Assembly: GCF_018390605.1 (NCBI RefSeq)
Contig: NZ_JAHBGD010000024.1
Span: forward strand, 62,001-126,000
From: Ancylobacter defluvii
GTDB lineage: Bacteria; Pseudomonadota; Alphaproteobacteria; Rhizobiales; Xanthobacteraceae
Length of the DNA stretch: 64,000 nt
Direction of reading: 5' to 3'
Shown here: piece by piece, positions 12,093 to 18,817 of the stretch
Numbering within the stretch: position 1 is the first letter of the stretch
Layout of the letters: each line of letters starts with the position of its first letter
The notes under the pieces: generated by a model
The model's database searches: none
Told to the model about the DNA's origin: nothing
The model's input: only the letters and a program-made list of their open reading frames with translations
Made by a program: the position numbers and the translations under genes

Positions 12093-12860
12093 CTACCGGT
12101 CGCGGCAGGGAAACTCCTGCGCATGCACGGTGACCCCGCCCTCGCCGGCGAGGATCACCGCATAGGCCGGCGGCTCGAAGCTCACCCGGTGCGGTCCGGT
12201 AAAGGCAAGCGCCGACTGGTGGTTGGTGCTGCGCACGGTGGCGAAGGGGATGCCGTCGCAATGGCCGCTGGTCAGCCGATGCACATGGCCGGCGAAGAGG
12301 TGACGCACATTGCCGTGCCGGCGCAACACCGCCAACAGCCGGCCGGCATCGGCAAGTCGTGAACTGTCCAGCGAGGGAATGCCAATTTCCACCGGCGGAT
12401 GATGCAGGAAAATCAAAGCGTTGCGCGCTCCTGCAAGCGCCGCGTCGAGCCAGCCGAGCCGCGCGTCGCAGAGCCGTCCTTCGACATGGCAGGGCTCATG
12501 GGTATCGAGCAGCAGCACCCGCCACCCGTCGAGGTCGACGGCGGACTGCACGAAACCTCCCTCCCCGAGCCCGTCAGGGAAGGCGCCGGCAAAGGCGGCG
12601 CGGTCGTCATGGTTGCCCATCATCAGCCGATACGGCGCCTTCAGCACGACGAGACGCTCGGCCAGCGCCGCATAGGCTGCCGGCTCGCCATTGTCGGTGA
12701 GGTCGCCGGAGAACACCACGAGATCGGCATCCCCATGGTGGCGGTTGAGGTCGGCAATGCAGTCCTCCAGCCGCGCCAGCGGGTCGGAACCGTGCAGCGT
12801 CCCGCCCGGCAGGACGAGATGCAGATCACTTACCTGAATGATCTTGCACGCGTTTTTCAC
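12093..12860 (-). CDS. Calcineurin-type metallophosphoesterase (class III phosphodiesterase, GpdQ/CpdA-like)
   Basis: A 255-residue cytoplasmic phosphodiesterase without signal peptide. The metal ligand motifs appear in order: D12-L-H14, GDLTDNG, GNHDD, LHHPP and GHVHR. This set defines the CpdA/GpdQ subfamily, which cleaves cyclic nucleotides or glycerophosphodiesters with a dimetal centre. It is the last gene of the importer operon: its GTG start overlaps the IMPase stop by four bases (GTGA). Because the operon also has an importer and a monophosphatase, cleavage of an imported phosphodiester is more likely than cAMP turnover. Exact substrate is inferred, not shown. Confidence 0.85.
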   Translation of the reverse strand: MKNACKIIQVSDLHLVLPGGTLHGSDPLARLEDCIADLNRHHGDADLVVFSGDLTDNGEPAAYAALAERLVVLKAPYRLMMGNHDDRAAFAGAFPDGLGEGGFVQSAVDLDGWRVLLLDTHEPCHVEGRLCDARLGWLDAALAGARNALIFLHHPPVEIGIPSLDSSRLADAGRLLAVLRRHGNVRHLFAGHVHRLTSGHCDGIPFATVRSTNHQSALAFTGPHRVSFEPPAYAVILAGEGGVTVHAQEFPCRDR

Positions 12861-13666
12861 GCCGTCCTCTCCAGCCGCGTGGCCTCGATCAGTGCCAGCA
12901 CCTCGTCGCGCAGCTGCGGCGCGCAGCCGATCACCGGGCCGCCGGCGATCAGGTCGCCGGCTTCGAAATCATTGGTCCAGCCCCCGGCCTCGCGGATCAG
13001 GCACAGGCCGGCAAGGCAGTCCCAGGCATTGATATGCGGCTCGTAATAGGCGGCGAGACGCCCGCAGGCGACATGCGCCAACCCCAAAGCCCCGGAACCG
13101 TGGCGCACGAACATGCCGCCTGCCGCCAGCAACCGCTCGATGAAACCGGTCACCGCACGCGGCGGCACCCGACCATTGGCGCCGACGCTCACCAGCCCGT
13201 GGCGCAGATCATTGCCTGCATCGACGCGGATCGTCTCGCCGTTCAGCGTCGCCCCCCGTCCGGCGATGGCACGGAACAATTCGCCCGCCGTAGGATCGAA
13301 TATGAAGCCGGCCACCGTCTTCCCGTCGCGCATCAGTGCCAGCGAGATGCACCAGTTACGGATGCCGTGCAGGAAGCAGCTGGTGCCGTCGATTGGATCG
13401 AGAACCCAGACATATCCTGAGGTCGACGGCGTGAAACCATATTCCTCGCCAAGGAAGCCGTCGTCGGGAAACGCCGCGCCTACCCGCTGGCGCACCCGTT
13501 GCTCCACCTCGCGGTCGGCTATGCTCACCACGTCCTGCCCACCGGTCTTGGCCTCGACGGCGAGGCTGGCGACCTTCGCAAAATAGCCGAGCGCCAGAGC
13601 CCCGGCCTCATCGACGAGAACGCCCGCGACATCGAGGCGAACGGCAAGGGAATCAGGCTGCGTCAC
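12857..13666 (-). CDS. Inositol monophosphatase-family enzyme
   Basis: A 269-residue Mg-dependent, lithium-sensitive-type phosphatase. Metal ligands are visible: E74-E75 in GEEYG, D90-P-I-D93-G-T in WVLDPIDGT, and the aspartate in INAWDCLAG. Start: GTG at 13666, overlapping the LacI stop in GTGA; the longer upstream frame is inside lacI. It should release phosphate from a sugar or inositol phosphate produced by the phosphodiesterase encoded next. Histidinol phosphatase or PAP phosphatase activities also occur in the family, so substrate assignment rests on context. Confidence 0.88.
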   Translation of the reverse strand: MTQPDSLAVRLDVAGVLVDEAGALALGYFAKVASLAVEAKTGGQDVVSIADREVEQRVRQRVGAAFPDDGFLGEEYGFTPSTSGYVWVLDPIDGTSCFLHGIRNWCISLALMRDGKTVAGFIFDPTAGELFRAIAGRGATLNGETIRVDAGNDLRHGLVSVGANGRVPPRAVTGFIERLLAAGGMFVRHGSGALGLAHVACGRLAAYYEPHINAWDCLAGLCLIREAGGWTNDFEAGDLIAGGPVIGCAPQLRDEVLALIEATRLERTA

Positions 13667-14715
13667 GAAGGCACTCCGTTGTGTGTCGGGGTAGTGAAAG
13701 GGGCGAGCGTACTCGCCCGCTCGACGAATACCGCCTGCAGCCGCGCCGTCGAAGGCGCCGCGGCGGGGTCGGTGAGCCGGCGATCGAGATGGGCAATCGT
13801 GCGGGCGGCGATCTCCGCCGGATCCTGCCGGAAGGTGCTGAGGCAGTAGGCGTCCCAGCTTGCTTCGGGAATGTCGTCGAAGCCGATCACCGCCACGTCT
13901 TCCGGCACACGCAGGCCGAAGCGACCACGCACAGCGTCCATAAGCCCGCACGCAACAAGATCATTGACGCAGAATATCGCCTGCGGCCGTTCCGATCCTG
14001 CGAACAGCTGTCCGGCCACCGCCTGCCCGCCGGCATAGTCGGTATCGGCTCCGCGCGCGGAAGCGACCTGCGCGCCCTGACGCCGGGCTTCGTCGACGAA
14101 GGCCCGCTCGCGCTCGACGATACTCGGCGTTCCCGAGGCCGAGCCGGCCAGCCCCAGCCGCGTCAGGCCCCGTGCCACGAACAGTCGCGCCGCCGCACGC
14201 GCCGCGCCGTCATTGTCGATCCGCACATGATCGCAGCCAGGCTCGGAGCGGCCGATGGAGATCAGGGGCTGTCCGTTGCGGCGGGCCAGTTCGACGAAGG
14301 AAGCCGGCGGCGAGCCGGACAGGATGATCGTCGCTTCGGCGCGGTAGCCGAACAGCGCCGCCTGCGCCGCCTCCAACTCCGCCGGCGACGAGCCGGTATT
14401 GATGAGGAACGGCACATTGCCGCGCCGGATGAGCGCCGCTGTCAGCGTGGAGACGAGATGGGCGCGGAAGCCGACCTCCGGCTTTGTGGCCACCAGCCCA
14501 ACCAGCCGGCTGCGATTGGCGAGCAACCCGCGCGCCAGGTCGTTGACCTGATAGCCGAGCTCGGCCGCCGCCCGCATCACCTTCTCGCGCGTCTCCGGCG
14601 CGACACTGGCCCCCGGCGTGAAGGCACGCGACACCGCCGAGCGCGAGACACCGGCCCGCTCCGCCACCTGCTGCGCGCTGACAAAGCCGCGCGCGCCGTC
14701 TTCGAGAAGGGGCAT
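13663..14715 (-). CDS. LacI-family transcriptional regulator of the phosphodiester-uptake operon
   Basis: A 350-residue repressor. The N-terminal HTH with hinge helix is at about residues 12-65 (SAQQVAERAGVSRSAVSRAF, then ARGLLANRS), followed by a periplasmic-binding-protein-like effector domain (LVGLVATKPEVGF, VIGFDDIPEASW). It lies inside the operon it probably controls, 2 bases after the second permease and overlapping the IMPase gene, so repression would be autoregulated. A perfect 16-base palindrome beside the first gene's start is the best operator candidate. The effector is probably the imported compound or its phosphorylated breakdown product. Confidence 0.9.
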   Translation of the reverse strand: MPLLEDGARGFVSAQQVAERAGVSRSAVSRAFTPGASVAPETREKVMRAAAELGYQVNDLARGLLANRSRLVGLVATKPEVGFRAHLVSTLTAALIRRGNVPFLINTGSSPAELEAAQAALFGYRAEATIILSGSPPASFVELARRNGQPLISIGRSEPGCDHVRIDNDGAARAAARLFVARGLTRLGLAGSASGTPSIVERERAFVDEARRQGAQVASARGADTDYAGGQAVAGQLFAGSERPQAIFCVNDLVACGLMDAVRGRFGLRVPEDVAVIGFDDIPEASWDAYCLSTFRQDPAEIAARTIAHLDRRLTDPAAAPSTARLQAVFVERASTLAPFTTPTHNGVPS

Positions 14716-14717
14716 GG

Positions 14718-15569
14718 TCAGCGGCCGACCTTCGACAGCACGTCGGATTTGAGGAAGCGTTCCACCACCAGCATGAAGCCGATGGAGGGGATGAGCAGCA
14801 GCAGCGCGGTGATCGACGCCACCTGGTAGTTGCCGCCCGCCCCGGCAGTGTAGAGCAGCAGCGGCAGCATGTTCACGTCGGGCGCGCCGACGAAGTAGCT
14901 GCCGGTGAACTCATCAAGCGACTCCAGAAACACGAAGATCGCGCTGGCGAGCAGCCCCGGCGCCGCCAGCGGCAGCGTCACGTCGAGAAAGGCCCGCAGC
15001 GCCCCGGCGCCAATGGAGCGCGCCGCCTCCTCCAGTTCCGCATCGATGGCGGAGAAGGCGGCAGTGGCGATCCACACCGCATAAACGAGGCCGTGAGTGA
15101 CATGCACCAGCACCACGCCCGGAATCGTGCCGTTGAGGCCCAGCTGGTAGAACAGCCGCGCGACATTCACATAGACCGTCAGATTGGGGAACGCCTGCGG
15201 GATGAGGAAGGCGATGAGGATCGCCGCCCGGAACGGCAGCCTGAGCCGCGCCAGCGCATAGCCGGCGGGAATGGCGAGCGCCAGCGCCACCACCACGGTC
15301 AGCCCCGCCACGATGAGGCTGTTGGCCAGAGAATCCATCGCATTGCCGCGTGCCGCGAACACCCGGCCCCAATAGCTGAAACCGTAGTCGAGCGGCAGGG
15401 CATGCGGGAAATACCAGCGCTCCGCCACCGTCCACAGCACCAGATTGGCCAGCGGCCCGAAGATGACAAAGGCGATGAGCCCGAGCACCATACCGCGTGG
15501 GATCCACCAAAGATCAAGGCTCAGGACGGGACGCCCCGCCGGGGTGGCCGCGATGCCGGCACGTGCCAT
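14718..15569 (-). CDS. ABC transporter permease, second membrane subunit
   Basis: A 283-residue inner-membrane subunit with about six helices. The EAA loop that docks on the ATPase is EEAARSIGAGALRAFLDVTLP near residue 190. It belongs to the family of binding-protein-dependent permeases that serve spermidine/putrescine, Fe3+, 2-aminoethylphosphonate and phosphodiester importers. Its ATG overlaps the stop of the first permease by one base (TGATG), so translation is coupled to a gene that carries a frameshift, which could lower expression of this one. Confidence 0.88.
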   Translation of the reverse strand: MARAGIAATPAGRPVLSLDLWWIPRGMVLGLIAFVIFGPLANLVLWTVAERWYFPHALPLDYGFSYWGRVFAARGNAMDSLANSLIVAGLTVVVALALAIPAGYALARLRLPFRAAILIAFLIPQAFPNLTVYVNVARLFYQLGLNGTIPGVVLVHVTHGLVYAVWIATAAFSAIDAELEEAARSIGAGALRAFLDVTLPLAAPGLLASAIFVFLESLDEFTGSYFVGAPDVNMLPLLLYTAGAGGNYQVASITALLLLIPSIGFMLVVERFLKSDVLSKVGR

Positions 15570-16389
15570 CACGCCTTCTCCCTCACGCTGTGACGGAGAT
15601 ATACCCACGCTACCCCGGCGCTGGCGATCAGCGAGACCACCCCGAGCGCGTTGGCGACGCCATAATCGCCATAGGCATTGATGCGAAAGGCGATGTCGGC
15701 GGTGATCATGGTGGGCGACTGGGCGTTGATCATCAGCGGCACCGACAGCACCGACATCATGGTGACGAAGGAGAGCACCAGCGCCACCATCAGCGTGCCC
15801 GCCACTTGCGGCACCAATATTTCCGCAAGGATACGCAGCCGCGACGCCCCGAGATTGCGCGCCGCCTCGAGGGTGCCGCGATCGACCGAGGCCATCGCTC
15901 CGGCGACCAGCAGGGCGACGAAGGGGGTTTGCTTCCACACGAAGGCGATGACGATGCCGCGCCAGTCCAGCAGGCTCGTCGCCTCCAGGGGAGTGATCAA
16001 CCCGCACCGATCAGCACATTGTTCATCAGCCCGTTCTTGGCCAGAAAGGTGCGCAGCACCTGACCGACAACGATGAAGGGGATGAACATCGGCCAGCGGT
16101 AAAGCCAGCGCAGCAAGGCAACCGCGCGCGGATTCTCGCCGAGCGTCAGATAGCCGCCAATGGCGATGGCAAGCCCACCGATGATCGCCGTCGACAGGCC
16201 GACGATCATCAGCGTGAACAGGATATCCGAGGTGTAGAGCTCGAAGGTCTTGACGAAGTTGCCGAAACCGAACTCGCCCCCGACCTCGAAGGCGCCGGCC
16301 ACCGAAACGGCCAGCGGCACCACGAACAGCAGGAGGATCACCGCAAGGGCGGGCAGGACCAAGATCAGTCCCAGGAGGGGCGTCGGCAT
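15569..16389 (-). pseudogene. ABC transporter permease, first membrane subunit, disrupted by a one-base frameshift
   Basis: Two overlapping frames together encode one permease of about 273 residues. The N-terminal part runs from ATG 16389 (MPTPLLGLILVLPALA) to LMNNVLIGAG and then hits TGA at 15997-15999. The C-terminal part continues in another frame with LITPLEATSLLDWRGI and carries the EAA loop EAARNLGASRLRI. Adding one G at the G-run complementary to 16001-16003 joins IGAG to LITPLEA exactly. A one-base deletion, a sequencing error or programmed slippage are the options. An alternative start at 16437 would add 16 hydrophilic residues. All flanking genes are intact and translationally coupled, which argues for a recent or artefactual change. 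Confidence 0.85.
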
Positions 16390-16455
16390 GTCGGATGTCC
16401 GGGGAGAAAAGGGAGCACCCTCGCCGGGCGCTCCCATCCACTAAGCCAGACGTGC

Positions 16456-17607
16456 TCAGTTGGTGGCCTGGCGCTCATAAGCCTCGAGGATCGCGCTGTT
16501 ATAGGGCGCGATCGGGAACGGCTTGCCACTCTTGGCGAGGTCTTCCGGCGTCACGTCGGTGAACAGCTTGTTCCAGGTAGCCTTGTCGAGCTCCGGCTGC
16601 ACATATTGCGCATCGATGCCGGGATACCAGTTGAAGCGCTTCACGATACCCTCGGCCTGCACCTTCGGGCTGGTGGCGAGCTCGACGAACTTCTCGGCCA
16701 GTTCCTTGTTCGGGCTCTTGGCCGGGATGACATAATGCATCGGCTGGCCGGGCATGCCGGGCGCCGGCAGCACCAGCTTGAAGTCCGGCGGCAGCTGGCC
16801 ATTGGCCTGCCAGGAATAGAACATGTCGACCCATACCGGGCCCATGGCGATCTCGCCGCGCGACAGCAGATCGAGCGTGCCGGCATTGCCGGGGGTAAGC
16901 GTCGCATTCTTGGTGAAATCACGCAGCGAGGAGAAGGCGGCATCCCACTTCTTGGTCTCGGCCTCTTCGAAGGGGCCGTTCATCAGCTTCTGCGCGTCGC
17001 CATCGCCGAAGGCATAGATCCAGCCCATCACGAAGCTGACGCCCGAGGCGCCGCCCTTGATGCCGTTATAGCCGAACTGCTTGGGGTGGGCCTTCGCCCA
17101 TTCGGCGAGCTCGGCGTAGCTCTTGGGTGGGTTCGGCACCAGCGCCGGGTTGTAGGCGATGGCGGTCTGGCTGTTGAACATCGGCATGACGAAACCGGTC
17201 ACCTTGGTGCCCAGCGCCATGTCGGCATTGGCGCGGCTCACCAGCTTGCCGGTGGAGATCTTGTCGCGATAGGCCTCGAGATAGTCACCCTTGATCATCG
17301 GGCCGACGAACTTCTCGTGCACCACCGCGACATCGGTATCCCAGCTGGCGACGCCCGCCTGCTTCTGTGCCTCGAAGCGCTCGACAACTTTCTGCGAACC
17401 GGCATCGCCCGGCCCGGTGCCGACCACGCGCACCGTGTTGCCGGGATACTGTGCCTCGAACAGCGGTGCGAGATACTGGTTCACATAGTCGACCATGTTC
17501 TGATCGCCGGCGGTGATGACAGTGAGCTCGGCAGCGAAGGCGGGCGCGACGGGAAGGCCGAGCGCCAGCGTCGTCGAAACGAACGCGGTCTTGAGGAAGC
17601 TCTGCAT
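16456..17607 (-). CDS. ABC transporter periplasmic substrate-binding protein (family 1)
   Basis: A 383-residue secreted binding protein. The signal peptide is MQSFLKTAFVSTTLALGL onward to APAFA, with cleavage before AELTVIT. The mature fold has two lobes (AELTVITAGDQNMVDYVN at the start, TAIAYNPALVPNPPKSYAELAEW at the hinge) typical of proteins annotated for spermidine/putrescine, iron, thiamine or phosphonate uptake. A strong AAAAGGAG precedes the ATG. The gene lies between the ATPase and permease genes, and the two phosphate-removing enzymes downstream suggest the ligand is a phosphorylated organic compound. Confidence 0.88.
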   Translation of the reverse strand: MQSFLKTAFVSTTLALGLPVAPAFAAELTVITAGDQNMVDYVNQYLAPLFEAQYPGNTVRVVGTGPGDAGSQKVVERFEAQKQAGVASWDTDVAVVHEKFVGPMIKGDYLEAYRDKISTGKLVSRANADMALGTKVTGFVMPMFNSQTAIAYNPALVPNPPKSYAELAEWAKAHPKQFGYNGIKGGASGVSFVMGWIYAFGDGDAQKLMNGPFEEAETKKWDAAFSSLRDFTKNATLTPGNAGTLDLLSRGEIAMGPVWVDMFYSWQANGQLPPDFKLVLPAPGMPGQPMHYVIPAKSPNKELAEKFVELATSPKVQAEGIVKRFNWYPGIDAQYVQPELDKATWNKLFTDVTPEDLAKSGKPFPIAPYNSAILEAYERQATN

Positions 17608-17640
17608 GGATCGGGCTCCTTTTGGGGATCGGGACGCGTG

Positions 17641-18792
17641 TCAGGTTGCTTGGAGAAGCCGCTCCGTCGGCTCGTGGGCGACGTGCGGAGGAAGGGGGAG
17701 CCCCCGTTCGGGGGCCGGAAGGTTGAAGAGGAACAGCTTGTCGCCGGGGATGCGCAGCCGCACCGGCGCGCCGACCTCGAAGGACCGGGCTGCATCGGCG
17801 AACAAGGACTCGTCGCCAACCCGCACCGAGTGTCGCCAAGCGCCGCCGAGATAGCTCGCCGTCTCGATATGGCCGCTGAACTCCAGCTCGCCCGCGACCG
17901 GCGCCGGCGCATCGATTGCCACCAGTTCCGCCGCCTCGGCCCGGAAGCGTGCCTCCATCGGCCCGCTCTGCAGTTTCCGCCCGCCGAGCGGCAATGCGGC
18001 ACCGGCGTCATGTGGACCGGCCGTGATCCACAGCGTGCCGCCGGCGATGCGCCCATAAAGGGTCAACGCGTTTTCCGCCCCCATAAAGGCGGCAACGAAG
18101 GCGCTGGCCGGCCGGTTGTAGACCTCTTCCGGCGTGCCCTGTTGGGCGATGCGGCCGGCATCCATGATGACGACGCGATCTGCCATCGCCATCGCCTCCT
18201 CGCGGTCATGGGTGACGATGATCGCGGTGATGCCGAGCCGCTTCTGCAAGGCGCCGATCTCGTGGCGCACCTTCAGCCTTATGCGGGCGTCGAGATTGGA
18301 GAGCGGCTCGTCGAGCAGCAGGATCTGCGGATCGATCGCCAGCGCCCGTCCGAGAGCCACGCGCTGGCGCTGGCCGCCGGAGAGCGCCGCCGGCTTGCGG
18401 GCTCCCAGCCCTTCCAGGCCCAGCAGCGCCTCGATTTCCGCCACTCGCCGATCGATCACGGCGCGCGAAAGCCGCTTCAGCTTCAGCCCGTAGCCGATAT
18501 TCTTCGCCACGCTCATATGCGGCCACAGCGCATAGGACTGGAAGACCAGCGCCATGCCGCGCCGGTCGGCCGGCAGCCGCGTCACGTCGCGCCCGGCGAC
18601 CGCGACCATTCCTTCGGAGGGCGCGACGAACCCGGCGATGCTGCGCAGCAACGTGGTCTTTCCGCAGCCGGAGGCGCCGAGCAGCGCCACGAACTCGCCC
18701 TTGCGGATGGTGAGCTCAAGCCCATCCAGCACCCGCGTCGCGCCATAGCCGACGGAAAGATTACTGACCTCGAGGAAGGCGTCGTCGTTCAT
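17641..18792 (-). CDS. ABC transporter ATP-binding protein (PotA/UgpC type)
   Basis: A 383-residue importer ATPase. Walker A is GASGCGKTT near residue 38, the signature is LSGGQRQRV, Walker B is ILLLDEPLSNLD, and the switch histidine is in VTHDREEA. A C-terminal regulatory TOBE domain (about residue 235 onward) is typical of PotA/UgpC/MalK ATPases. I used ATG 18792, preceded by AAGGGG; a GTG at 18807 would start inside the palindrome. It is the first gene of the seven-gene operon, with the candidate LacI operator directly upstream. Confidence 0.9.
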   Translation of the reverse strand: MNDDAFLEVSNLSVGYGATRVLDGLELTIRKGEFVALLGASGCGKTTLLRSIAGFVAPSEGMVAVAGRDVTRLPADRRGMALVFQSYALWPHMSVAKNIGYGLKLKRLSRAVIDRRVAEIEALLGLEGLGARKPAALSGGQRQRVALGRALAIDPQILLLDEPLSNLDARIRLKVRHEIGALQKRLGITAIIVTHDREEAMAMADRVVIMDAGRIAQQGTPEEVYNRPASAFVAAFMGAENALTLYGRIAGGTLWITAGPHDAGAALPLGGRKLQSGPMEARFRAEAAELVAIDAPAPVAGELEFSGHIETASYLGGAWRHSVRVGDESLFADAARSFEVGAPVRLRIPGDKLFLFNLPAPERGLPLPPHVAHEPTERLLQAT

Positions 18793-18801
18793 TCCAGCCC
18801 C

Positions 18802-18817
18802 TTGCACAGCTGTGCAA
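18802..18817 (-). promoter_or_regulatory. Perfect 16-base palindrome, candidate LacI operator of the operon
   Basis: TTGCACAGCTGTGCAA is fully self-complementary and ends 10 bases from the ATPase start codon. Position and symmetry fit a repressor site that would block initiation. The LacI gene within this operon is the obvious candidate binder. Confidence 0.6.

What the first reader, a model, noticed from the sequence alone, without database searches (positions are those of the whole stretch)
12093..18792. Seven-gene operon that looks like an importer plus two-step phosphodiester degradation pathway
The sequence shows, in one tightly coupled operon, an ATPase, binding protein, two permeases, LacI regulator, IMPase-like phosphatase and calcineurin-type phosphodiesterase, with two GTGA overlaps joining the last three genes. 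GpdQ-like enzymes cleave glycerophosphodiesters and IMPase releases phosphate from inositol phosphates; both are established activities of the families. Inference: the importer brings in a phosphodiester such as glycerophosphoinositol, which is cleaved and then dephosphorylated. I know of no fully described system with exactly this gene set.
Basis: partly seen in the sequence, partly recalled or inferred. Interest (0 to 1): 0.78.

Follow-up and report, generated by a model that had tools for sequence, protein, structure and literature searches.

The report
LacI-controlled phosphodiester uptake and breakdown operon
A soil bacterium carries a switchable gene set that probably imports a small phosphate diester and takes it apart in two steps; relatives swap the importer and the enzymes but keep the same kind of switch, which points to a family of phosphate-ester scavenging systems that I did not find described.

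Summary
The seven-gene operon is real and its coordinates are right. One flaw was missed: the first permease is frameshifted here, although intact in 80 of 80 named related loci. The genome is an Ancylobacter (Hyphomicrobiales). In 99 distinct loci with this binding protein, the diesterase slot holds a SpdA/GpdQ-type metallophosphodiesterase (39), a plant-CPDase-like 2H cyclic phosphodiesterase (31), PhoD with a HAD-family protein (4), or none of these (25). An unsupervised scan found a putative LacI operator, the 16-bp palindrome TTGCACAGCTGTGCAA, just before the first gene and once in the genome. The same site and LacI clade accompany other ABC importers paired with GDPD+IMPase, metallo-beta-lactamase+DSP-like phosphatase, or (AfuA-like sugar-phosphate importers) IMPase alone. 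So this looks like one cassette of a LacI-controlled organophosphate-scavenging family. The substrate is not settled. Glycerophosphoinositol is weakened because IolB is absent from 18 of 18 same-genus genomes tested. A vicinal cyclic phosphate, or a diester with a neighbouring hydroxyl, fits the enzyme swaps best. No function was measured.

The parts
18802..18817 (.). putative LacI operator, perfect 16-bp palindrome TTGCACAGCTGTGCAA
   Evidence: Palindrome scan of 100 upstream regions (window plus 99 loci, two of them duplicate places): core CACAGCTGTG in 42, CACAGCCGTG in 25, CACAGCTGCG in 13. One site in the own genome. TGCACNNNNGTGCA lies within 420 bp 5' of the ATPase match in 69 of 80 named loci.
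17641..18792 (-). ABC transporter ATPase (MalK/UgpC/PotA type)
   Evidence: PF00005 117.6 bits, TOBE_2; below the cut-offs of the UgpC, PotA and PhnT2 models.
16456..17607 (-). periplasmic solute-binding protein, YnjB-like, with a signal-peptide-like N-terminus (by eye)
   Evidence: SBP_bac_8 82.6 bits; 494 relatives by tblastn in genome contigs, best 80 kept; predicted fold matches sugar, polyamine, iron and Ugp-type binding proteins.
15569..16437 (-). permease A, broken in this assembly by a frameshift near 16000 (pieces 15997-16437 and 15569 to about 16004)
   Evidence: intact in 80 of 80 named loci.
14718..15569 (-). permease B
   Evidence: BPD_transp_1 54.5 bits; start ATG at 15569.
13663..14715 (-). 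LacI-family repressor with the stretch SRSAVSRAFTPGASVA in its DNA-binding domain
   Evidence: PF00356 and PF13377; lies in the 54-row LacI clade, support 99/85.
12857..13666 (-). IMPase-family phosphomonoesterase (GTG start, GTGA overlap with LacI)
   Evidence: PF00459 175.5 bits; start and overlap.
12093..12860 (-). class III (calcineurin-type) phosphodiesterase, SpdA/GpdQ/Rv0805-like (GTG start, GTGA overlap)
   Evidence: PF00149 58.4 bits; SpdA model 239.6 bits, cut-off 400; PDB Rv0805 3e-26 and the 2zo9/3d03 phosphohydrolase 2.3e-25 (GpdQ, name recalled).

Best explanation
The operon is an inducible organophosphate-scavenging cassette. The ABC importer brings in a small phosphodiester. 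The SpdA/GpdQ-type enzyme opens it to a phosphomonoester. The IMPase-family enzyme removes the phosphate, and the freed alcohol or sugar is used as carbon. The LacI protein represses the operon at the 16-bp palindrome just before the first gene and is probably released by the phosphomonoester intermediate. Gene content, order and conservation, the palindrome and the cassette swapping are shown; import direction, the two reactions, repression at the palindrome and the inducer are inferred. Best guess for the substrate: a vicinal cyclic phosphodiester (2',3'-cyclic nucleotide, glycerol 1,2-cyclic phosphate, inositol 1,2-cyclic phosphate) or a diester with a neighbouring hydroxyl. Estimated likelihood: about 0.75 for a phosphodiester pathway, about 0.45 for this substrate class.
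For: (1) Diesterase slot, window plus 100 loci (two of the 100, L142 and L143, are the same places as L080 and L063, so 99 distinct): SpdA-like PDE 39, CPDase-like 31, PhoD 4, none 25 (40, 31, 5, 25 with duplicates); no row carries two of these labels. Starred branches of the binding-protein tree force at least 3 changes of the CPD label and 7 of the PDE label. The CPDase-like protein's only PDB match is Arabidopsis cyclic phosphodiesterase, 1.9e-14. S. meliloti SpdA hydrolyses 2',3'-cAMP but has no detectable activity on 3',5'-cAMP, with a poor Km of 3.7 mM (PMC4222275, abstract and passages). (2) Phosphatase-family genes recur: IMP in 17 of the 101 rows, a HAD-family hydrolase beside PhoD. 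(3) Operator: all 17 exact sites in 16 of 297 order genomes lie in loci with ABC-importer genes (coordinates). (4) Cassette logic (68 loci): one binding-protein type with GDPD in 15 of 15 (IMPase in 12 of these), a second with GDPD+IMPase in 7 of 7, a third with MBL+DSP in 7 of 7; AfuA-like (9.9e-92 to the sugar-phosphate binder 4r72) with IMPase in 8 of 9 and a diesterase in 0 of 9. (5) All 41 LacI rows of these sister cassettes fall in one clade with 12 window-type rows, support 99/85. (6) Matches to a Na/Pi transporter (PF02690 confirmed in L166) lie in 5 of the 68 loci, as expected if phosphate is left over.
Against: No assay. 25 of 99 distinct loci have none of the three diesterases in place, including 15 named loci with LacI only and 2 with neither; whether an enzyme lies elsewhere in those genomes was not tested. 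IMPase is found in only 14 of the 80 named loci. Two distant loci (L128, L130) have a CPDase-like gene and also a different metallophosphodiesterase on the opposite strand, so exclusivity is not absolute. Six distant relatives of the importer have a LacI outside the clade. The binding-protein model is only moderate (pLDDT 77) and its matches do not pick a ligand. Permease A is broken in this very assembly.
Confidence: 0.72

Rival explanations
1. Glycerophosphoinositol importer and degradation pathway: PDE gives inositol phosphate plus glycerol, and IMPase frees inositol.
For: IMPase family name; sister LacI cassettes pair GDPD with IMPase; glycerol kinase is in 18 of 18 same-genus genomes tested, so the glycerol half could be used.
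Against: IolB is absent from 18 of 18 same-genus genomes tested, including 5 that carry the binding-protein gene (one search read). IMPase is found in only 14 of 80 named loci of this type. The CPDase replacement favours cyclic or vicinal-hydroxyl esters.
Confidence: 0.12
2. Salvage of 2',3'-cyclic nucleotides from RNA decay: PDE gives 3'- or 2'-nucleotides, and the IMPase-like enzyme gives nucleosides.
For: SpdA and Rv0805 act on 2',3'-cyclic nucleotides (PMC4222275, passages); the replacing enzyme matches a plant cyclic phosphodiesterase. Within 18 same-genus genomes, nucleoside hydrolase PF01156 occurs in 3, all carriers of the binding-protein gene (3 of 5 carriers, 0 of 13 others).
Against: The three are close relatives (binding proteins 92 to 100% identical to the window's), so shared descent may explain the overlap. 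The test was post hoc. I recognised no nucleoside genes beside the loci that I looked through.
Confidence: 0.2
3. Polyamine, iron or 2-aminoethylphosphonate importer with two unrelated hydrolases caught in the operon.
For: Databases name some relatives 'putative spermidine/putrescine'. The fold matches PotD and ferric binders as well as sugar binders. PhnT2 is the top ATPase model.
Against: The PotA, PhnT and PhnT2 scores lie below the model cut-offs. The hydrolases are repeatedly replaced by others of related activity, and the LacI clade tracks phosphoesterases.
Confidence: 0.1
4. A cyclic-nucleotide signalling module in which the PDE ends a 3',5'-cAMP signal and the importer is incidental.
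For: The PDE shares the family of the 3',5'-cAMP phosphodiesterase model PRK11148 (91.5 bits).
Against: PRK11148 cut-off 225 not met, while the SpdA model scores 239.6; SpdA has no detectable 3',5'-cAMP activity (PMC4222275, abstract). The CPDase and PhoD replacements, and GDPD and MBL in sister cassettes, do not fit such a role (inference).
Confidence: 0.04

Closest known systems
acc (agrocinopine catabolism) operon of Agrobacterium
   Same: ABC importer for a phosphodiester, phosphodiesterase AccF, putative phosphatase AccG, and a repressor (AccR) whose effector is the phosphomonoester product (PMC4526662, passages).
   Different: Plant-tumour opine substrate on a Ti plasmid. I fetched no acc sequence, so protein families were not compared. 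No LacI clade or operator like this one appears in the passages read.
SpdA of Sinorhizobium meliloti
   Same: Same class III PDE family, 239.6 bits to its model.
   Different: Below the equivalog cut-off of 400. SpdA is described at the cyaD1 signalling locus (abstract), and the word transport does not occur in that paper's main text.
AfuABC sugar-phosphate importer
   Same: A sister cassette of the same LacI clade uses an AfuA-like binding protein with IMPase alone. The AfuA ligand residues H205, D206 and E229 (PMC4546632, passages) appear matched in L178 when I count along the alignment.
   Different: The window importer is a different binding-protein type and carries a diesterase.
LacI-family regulons surveyed in 344 genomes (PMC4052901)
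   Same: 16-bp even palindrome, local regulon linked to an importer.
   Different: The terms phosphodiester, glycerophospho and phosphatase do not occur in its main text (passages). A central CG pair is typical there; here the centre is GC (passages).
ugpBAEC-ugpQ
   Same: Importer plus diesterase for glycerophosphodiesters (recalled).
   Different: The UgpC model cut-off is not met (315.6 of 432); no GDPD in the window operon.

Membership tests
Class III metallophosphodiesterase (Metallophos) | Family profile and metal-ligand motifs (DxH, GD, GNHD, GHxH; motif names recalled) | tested here: met
   PF00149 58.4 bits, cut-off 21.5; SDLH, GDLTD, GNHD, HHPP and GHVH read in the sequence.
SpdA equivalog | Score at or above NF050112 cut-off 400 | tested here: not met
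   239.6 bits.
IMPase family | Inositol_P profile; LDPIDGT and WD motifs (recalled) | tested here: met
   175.5 bits, cut-off 27; LDPIDGT and AWD read.
Inositol-1-monophosphatase equivalog | NF008027 cut-off 332 | tested here: not met
   114.7 bits.
sn-glycerol-3-phosphate importer Ugp | UgpC model NF008653 cut-off 432 | tested here: not met
   315.6 bits.
Spermidine/putrescine importer | PotA equivalog NF006987 cut-off 482 | tested here: not met
   305.2 bits.
2-aminoethylphosphonate importer | PhnT2 TIGR03265 cut-off 457.7 | tested here: not met
   340.5 bits.
LacI organophosphate clade (proposed here) | LacI inside the supported clade | tested here: met
   54-row clade, 99/85.
LacI organophosphate clade (proposed here) | TTGCAC-N4-GTGCAA palindrome before the operon | tested here: met
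   18802-18817.
acc-type phosphodiester system | Regulator released by the phosphomonoester product | not testable with these tools
   Reported for AccR; not measured here.
AfuA-type sugar-phosphate binder | Window binding protein related in sequence to AfuA | tested here: inconclusive

The most novel reading that the evidence does not exclude
One clade of LacI repressors, with the operator TTGCAC-N4-GTGCAA, defines an undescribed regulon family of Hyphomicrobiales for living on phosphate esters. The switch is kept while importer, diesterase and monoesterase are exchanged as matched cassettes: monoester importers with phosphatase only, diester importers with diesterase plus phosphatase, sometimes with a phosphate transporter. 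The window operon is its cyclic-phosphodiester branch and would give SpdA-type and bacterial CPDase-type enzymes a physiological role.
Probability: 0.55. Interest if true: 0.7.

Novelty: new variant of a known kind. Interest (0 to 1): 0.57.

Why it matters
Much of the organic phosphorus in soil is phosphate esters (recalled), yet relatives of this importer are labelled 'polyamine', 'maltose' or 'uncharacterized' in databases. A conserved switch that marks organophosphate cassettes would let such importers be re-annotated from sequence, predicts which take monoesters and which take diesters, and offers a physiological substrate for SpdA-type enzymes, whose role the authors of PMC4222275 call elusive (abstract).

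Tried and rejected
Binding-protein ligand by structure: the model (pLDDT 77) matches 1,197 PDB chains at Foldseek E 0.001 or better, with sugar, polyamine, iron, sugar-phosphate and glycerophosphocholine binders nearly tied; no ligand inferred. Sequence search of PDB with the binding protein gave weak matches, MalE best at 3.5e-5.

Neighbouring catabolic genes as a substrate clue: a GlpD-like gene lies divergently in L021 and L022 only, not pursued. IolB absent, GlpK in all 18, nucleoside hydrolase in 3 of 18: suggestive at most.

Class-wide operator search: 1 of 385 genomes, the own one. So at exact match the palindrome was not seen outside the order.

A simple enrichment test on the HTH signature alone was weaker than the tree: either phosphoesterase type in 32 of 44 signature loci against 4 of 16 others, diesterase alone 23 of 44 against 4 of 16, p 0.08. 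The non-signature group included GDPD loci (L206, L208, L210) whose HTH my pattern missed, so I rely on the tree and the palindrome instead.

Literature searches that found no description of such a set. One search ranked mostly irrelevant papers. The library lacks most subscription journals. Passages of PMC7356202 (agrocinopine chemistry) added nothing new.

Limits of the LacI survey: of 101 LacI matches in 297 order genomes I fetched 60 by hand. Of the 41 left out, by my reading, 15 were window-type by LacI identity (53% or more), 8 were already held and 18 were of low rank. The reference proteins for the cassette table were taken from some of the same loci. 'None' in that table means no tblastn match to my reference set, so unfamiliar esterases there would be missed. 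For the LacI tree I hand-picked 86 loci, 20 of them window-type; the script dropped 6 (L129, L132, L137, L168, L181, L227). L196 and L197 were labelled window-type by LacI identity only: no importer was found beside either, and L197 has the PDE in two pieces around transposase-like ORFs. The palindrome counts cover whole loci of 15 to 19 kb for the sister cassettes, and its shuffles keep base composition only.

Full report
What is there. The window is part of a 5.28-Mb genome whose nearest named relatives are Ancylobacter species (same-genus genomes). On the minus strand, 18792 to 12093, lie an ABC ATPase, a solute-binding protein, two permeases, a LacI repressor, an IMPase-family protein and a calcineurin-type phosphodiesterase. 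The last three genes are joined by two exact GTGA overlaps. The first permease is split by a frameshift at a place that five congeners read straight through; it is intact in 80 of 80 named loci. I cannot tell an assembly error from a fresh mutation.

Conservation. The binding protein has 494 tblastn-confirmed relatives in the genome-contig collection, of which the best 80 were kept. Among 101 near genomes 8 had a match at E 1e-30, all of the same genus; in a wider draw, 36 of 397 order genomes had one at E 1e-40, 17 of 141 genera. All 80 named loci have both permeases beside the binding protein and 77 have the LacI gene; gene-by-gene order was listed, where my simple gene caller fused or missed some genes.

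The diesterase slot. By tblastn, the 80 named loci divide into PDE+LacI 22, PDE+IMP+LacI 13, CPD+LacI 23, IMP+CPD without LacI 1, PhoD+LacI 4, LacI only 15, neither 2. The LacI-only group includes L043, which has a weaker PDE match (38%) 8 kb away. CPD is a 2H phosphoesterase with Pfam CPDase and 2'-5' RNA ligase matches, and its only PDB match is the Arabidopsis cyclic phosphodiesterase. PhoD lies upstream with a HAD-family hydrolase. Adding the window and 20 more loci gives PDE 40, CPD 31, PhoD 5, none 25; two of the 20, L142 and L143, are the same contigs as L080 and L063, so the distinct counts are 39, 31, 4 and 25. On the binding-protein tree, starred branches force at least 7 changes of the PDE label and 3 of the CPD label, so exchange happened repeatedly. 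Against strict exclusivity: L128 and L130 carry, beside the CPD gene, a different metallophosphodiesterase on the opposite strand. Two loci, L066 and L144, carry IMP and CPD together, the same functional set as the window with another diesterase. SpdA of S. meliloti cleaves 2',3'-cyclic nucleotides, not detectably 3',5'-cAMP, with Km 3.7 mM for 2',3'-cAMP (PMC4222275; abstract and passages), so its true substrate is open.

The operator. An unsupervised scan for palindromes upstream of the ATPase in 100 regions (window plus 99 loci) gave one clear winner: core CACAGCTGTG in 42, CACAGCCGTG in 25 and CACAGCTGCG in 13. In the window the full palindrome TTGCACAGCTGTGCAA is at 18802-18817, nine bases before the ATPase start codon. 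It occurs once in the genome; 16 of 297 order genomes have an exact copy, and the reversed control pattern is 0 in the listed rows. A class-wide draw added none (1 of 385, the own genome). Eight of the 16 genomes have it before this same operon. The other eight led to new loci (L162 to L169).

Sister cassettes. Those eight loci hold other ABC operons, seven with a LacI gene of 37-47% identity to the window's (no LacI match in L168), and phosphoesterase genes nearby; in L167 only a DSP-like match was found. Pfam on chosen members confirms metallo-beta-lactamase, GDPD, Inositol_P, Metallophos, and a Na/Pi cotransporter with PhoU domains; the DSP-like proteins match DSPc at E 1e-5 to 1e-7 but below its cut-off. 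The MBL protein's best PDB match is a ribonuclease, TTHA0252, at 1.8e-12. A survey by LacI similarity found 101 matches in 76 of 297 genomes. I fetched 60 of these loci and joined them with the 8 operator loci. In these 68 loci the binding-protein type and the enzyme set go together: SGb with GDPD 15 of 15 (IMPase in 12), SGa with GDPD+IMPase 7 of 7, SMBL with MBL+DSP 7 of 7, S166 with MPE+DSP+IMP+Na/Pi 3 of 4, AfuA-like with IMPase 8 of 9 and no diesterase in 9 of 9; 26 loci had no such binding protein, 23 of them with no phosphoesterase match either. Two AfuA-like proteins match the sugar-phosphate binder AfuA at 9.9e-92 and 1.1e-90, and AfuA is shown to bind sugar phosphates (PMC4546632, abstract start and passages). 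That the likely monoester importers go without a diesterase, while the other cassettes have one, is the strongest single argument for the reading.

One switch. In a maximum-likelihood tree of 81 LacI proteins, one clade of 54 (support 99/85) holds all 41 LacI rows of the sister cassettes and 12 window-type rows, plus one row without a cassette, L195, which sits beside a molybdate-type binding protein. By my count 49 of the 54 lie beside an importer and at least one phosphoesterase; the exceptions are L024, L191, L195, L196 and L197. Twenty rows without cassettes and six distant window-type loci with another LacI fall outside. The next branch, L201, has an IMPase, an AppA-like histidine acid phosphatase and a UhpC/GlpT-like transporter beside it, again organophosphate genes. 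Among cassette loci that were not fetched by the palindrome, TTGCACNNNNGTGCAA occurs in 17 of 34 against 0 of 26 non-cassette loci and 0 of 60 shuffled; NTGCACNNNNGTGCAN in 29 of 34 against 3 of 26 (two of which, L197 and L201, are the borderline cases above) and 2 of 60 shuffled.

Substrate. For this genome: no IolB in 18 of 18 same-genus genomes tested, glycerol kinase in 18 of 18, and nucleoside hydrolase in 3, all carriers of the binding protein but close kin. This lowers glycerophosphoinositol as a carbon source here and leaves cyclic nucleotides and glycerol-type cyclic or linear diesters. I could not resolve it further.

What it works like, and what it is. It works like the acc system of Agrobacterium, where an imported phosphodiester is cut by AccF, a phosphatase AccG is predicted, and the phosphomonoester is the effector of the repressor AccR (PMC4526662, passages). 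It is not shown to be a member of that system. It fails the cut-offs of the SpdA, inositol-1-monophosphatase, UgpC, PotA and PhnT2 models. A 344-genome survey of LacI regulons does not contain the terms phosphodiester, glycerophospho or phosphatase in its main text (PMC4052901, passages). My paper searches found no description of such a gene set, within a library that lacks most subscription journals.

Noticed in passing
window 15990-16010: Permease A is frameshifted here although intact in 80 of 80 named loci; likely an assembly error or a very recent mutation.
   Followed up: yes
L166:6759-14083; L182:4317-11242; L189:2330-8937: A gene set of two IMPases, a DSP-like phosphatase, a Na/Pi cotransporter-like gene (Pfam-confirmed in L166) and a long metallophosphoesterase beside a LacI of the same clade: looks like organophosphate use with phosphate movement.
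   Followed up: partly
L201:4749-9765: AppA-like histidine acid phosphatase, UhpC/GlpT-like MFS transporter, IMPase and a LacI just outside the clade: a possible phytate or sugar-phosphate set.
   Followed up: partly
L197:6483-8576: The phosphodiesterase gene beside a window-type LacI is in two pieces around transposase-like ORFs.
   Followed up: no
L021:5979-7613 and the matching place in L022: A gene that looks like GlpD (my reading; Pfam says DAO) lies divergent to the operon in a Mesorhizobium and a Paramesorhizobium.
   Followed up: no
L217 (L140 holds the same place): importer and GDPD+IMPase cassette: One genome has the window-type importer converging on a GDPD+IMPase cassette of the same LacI clade.
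   Followed up: partly
L045, L053, L054 (cluster c66 upstream of the ATPase): A conserved secreted-looking protein of about 500 aa (no Pfam match for the L045 copy) precedes the operon in three Rhizobium-group loci.
   Followed up: no
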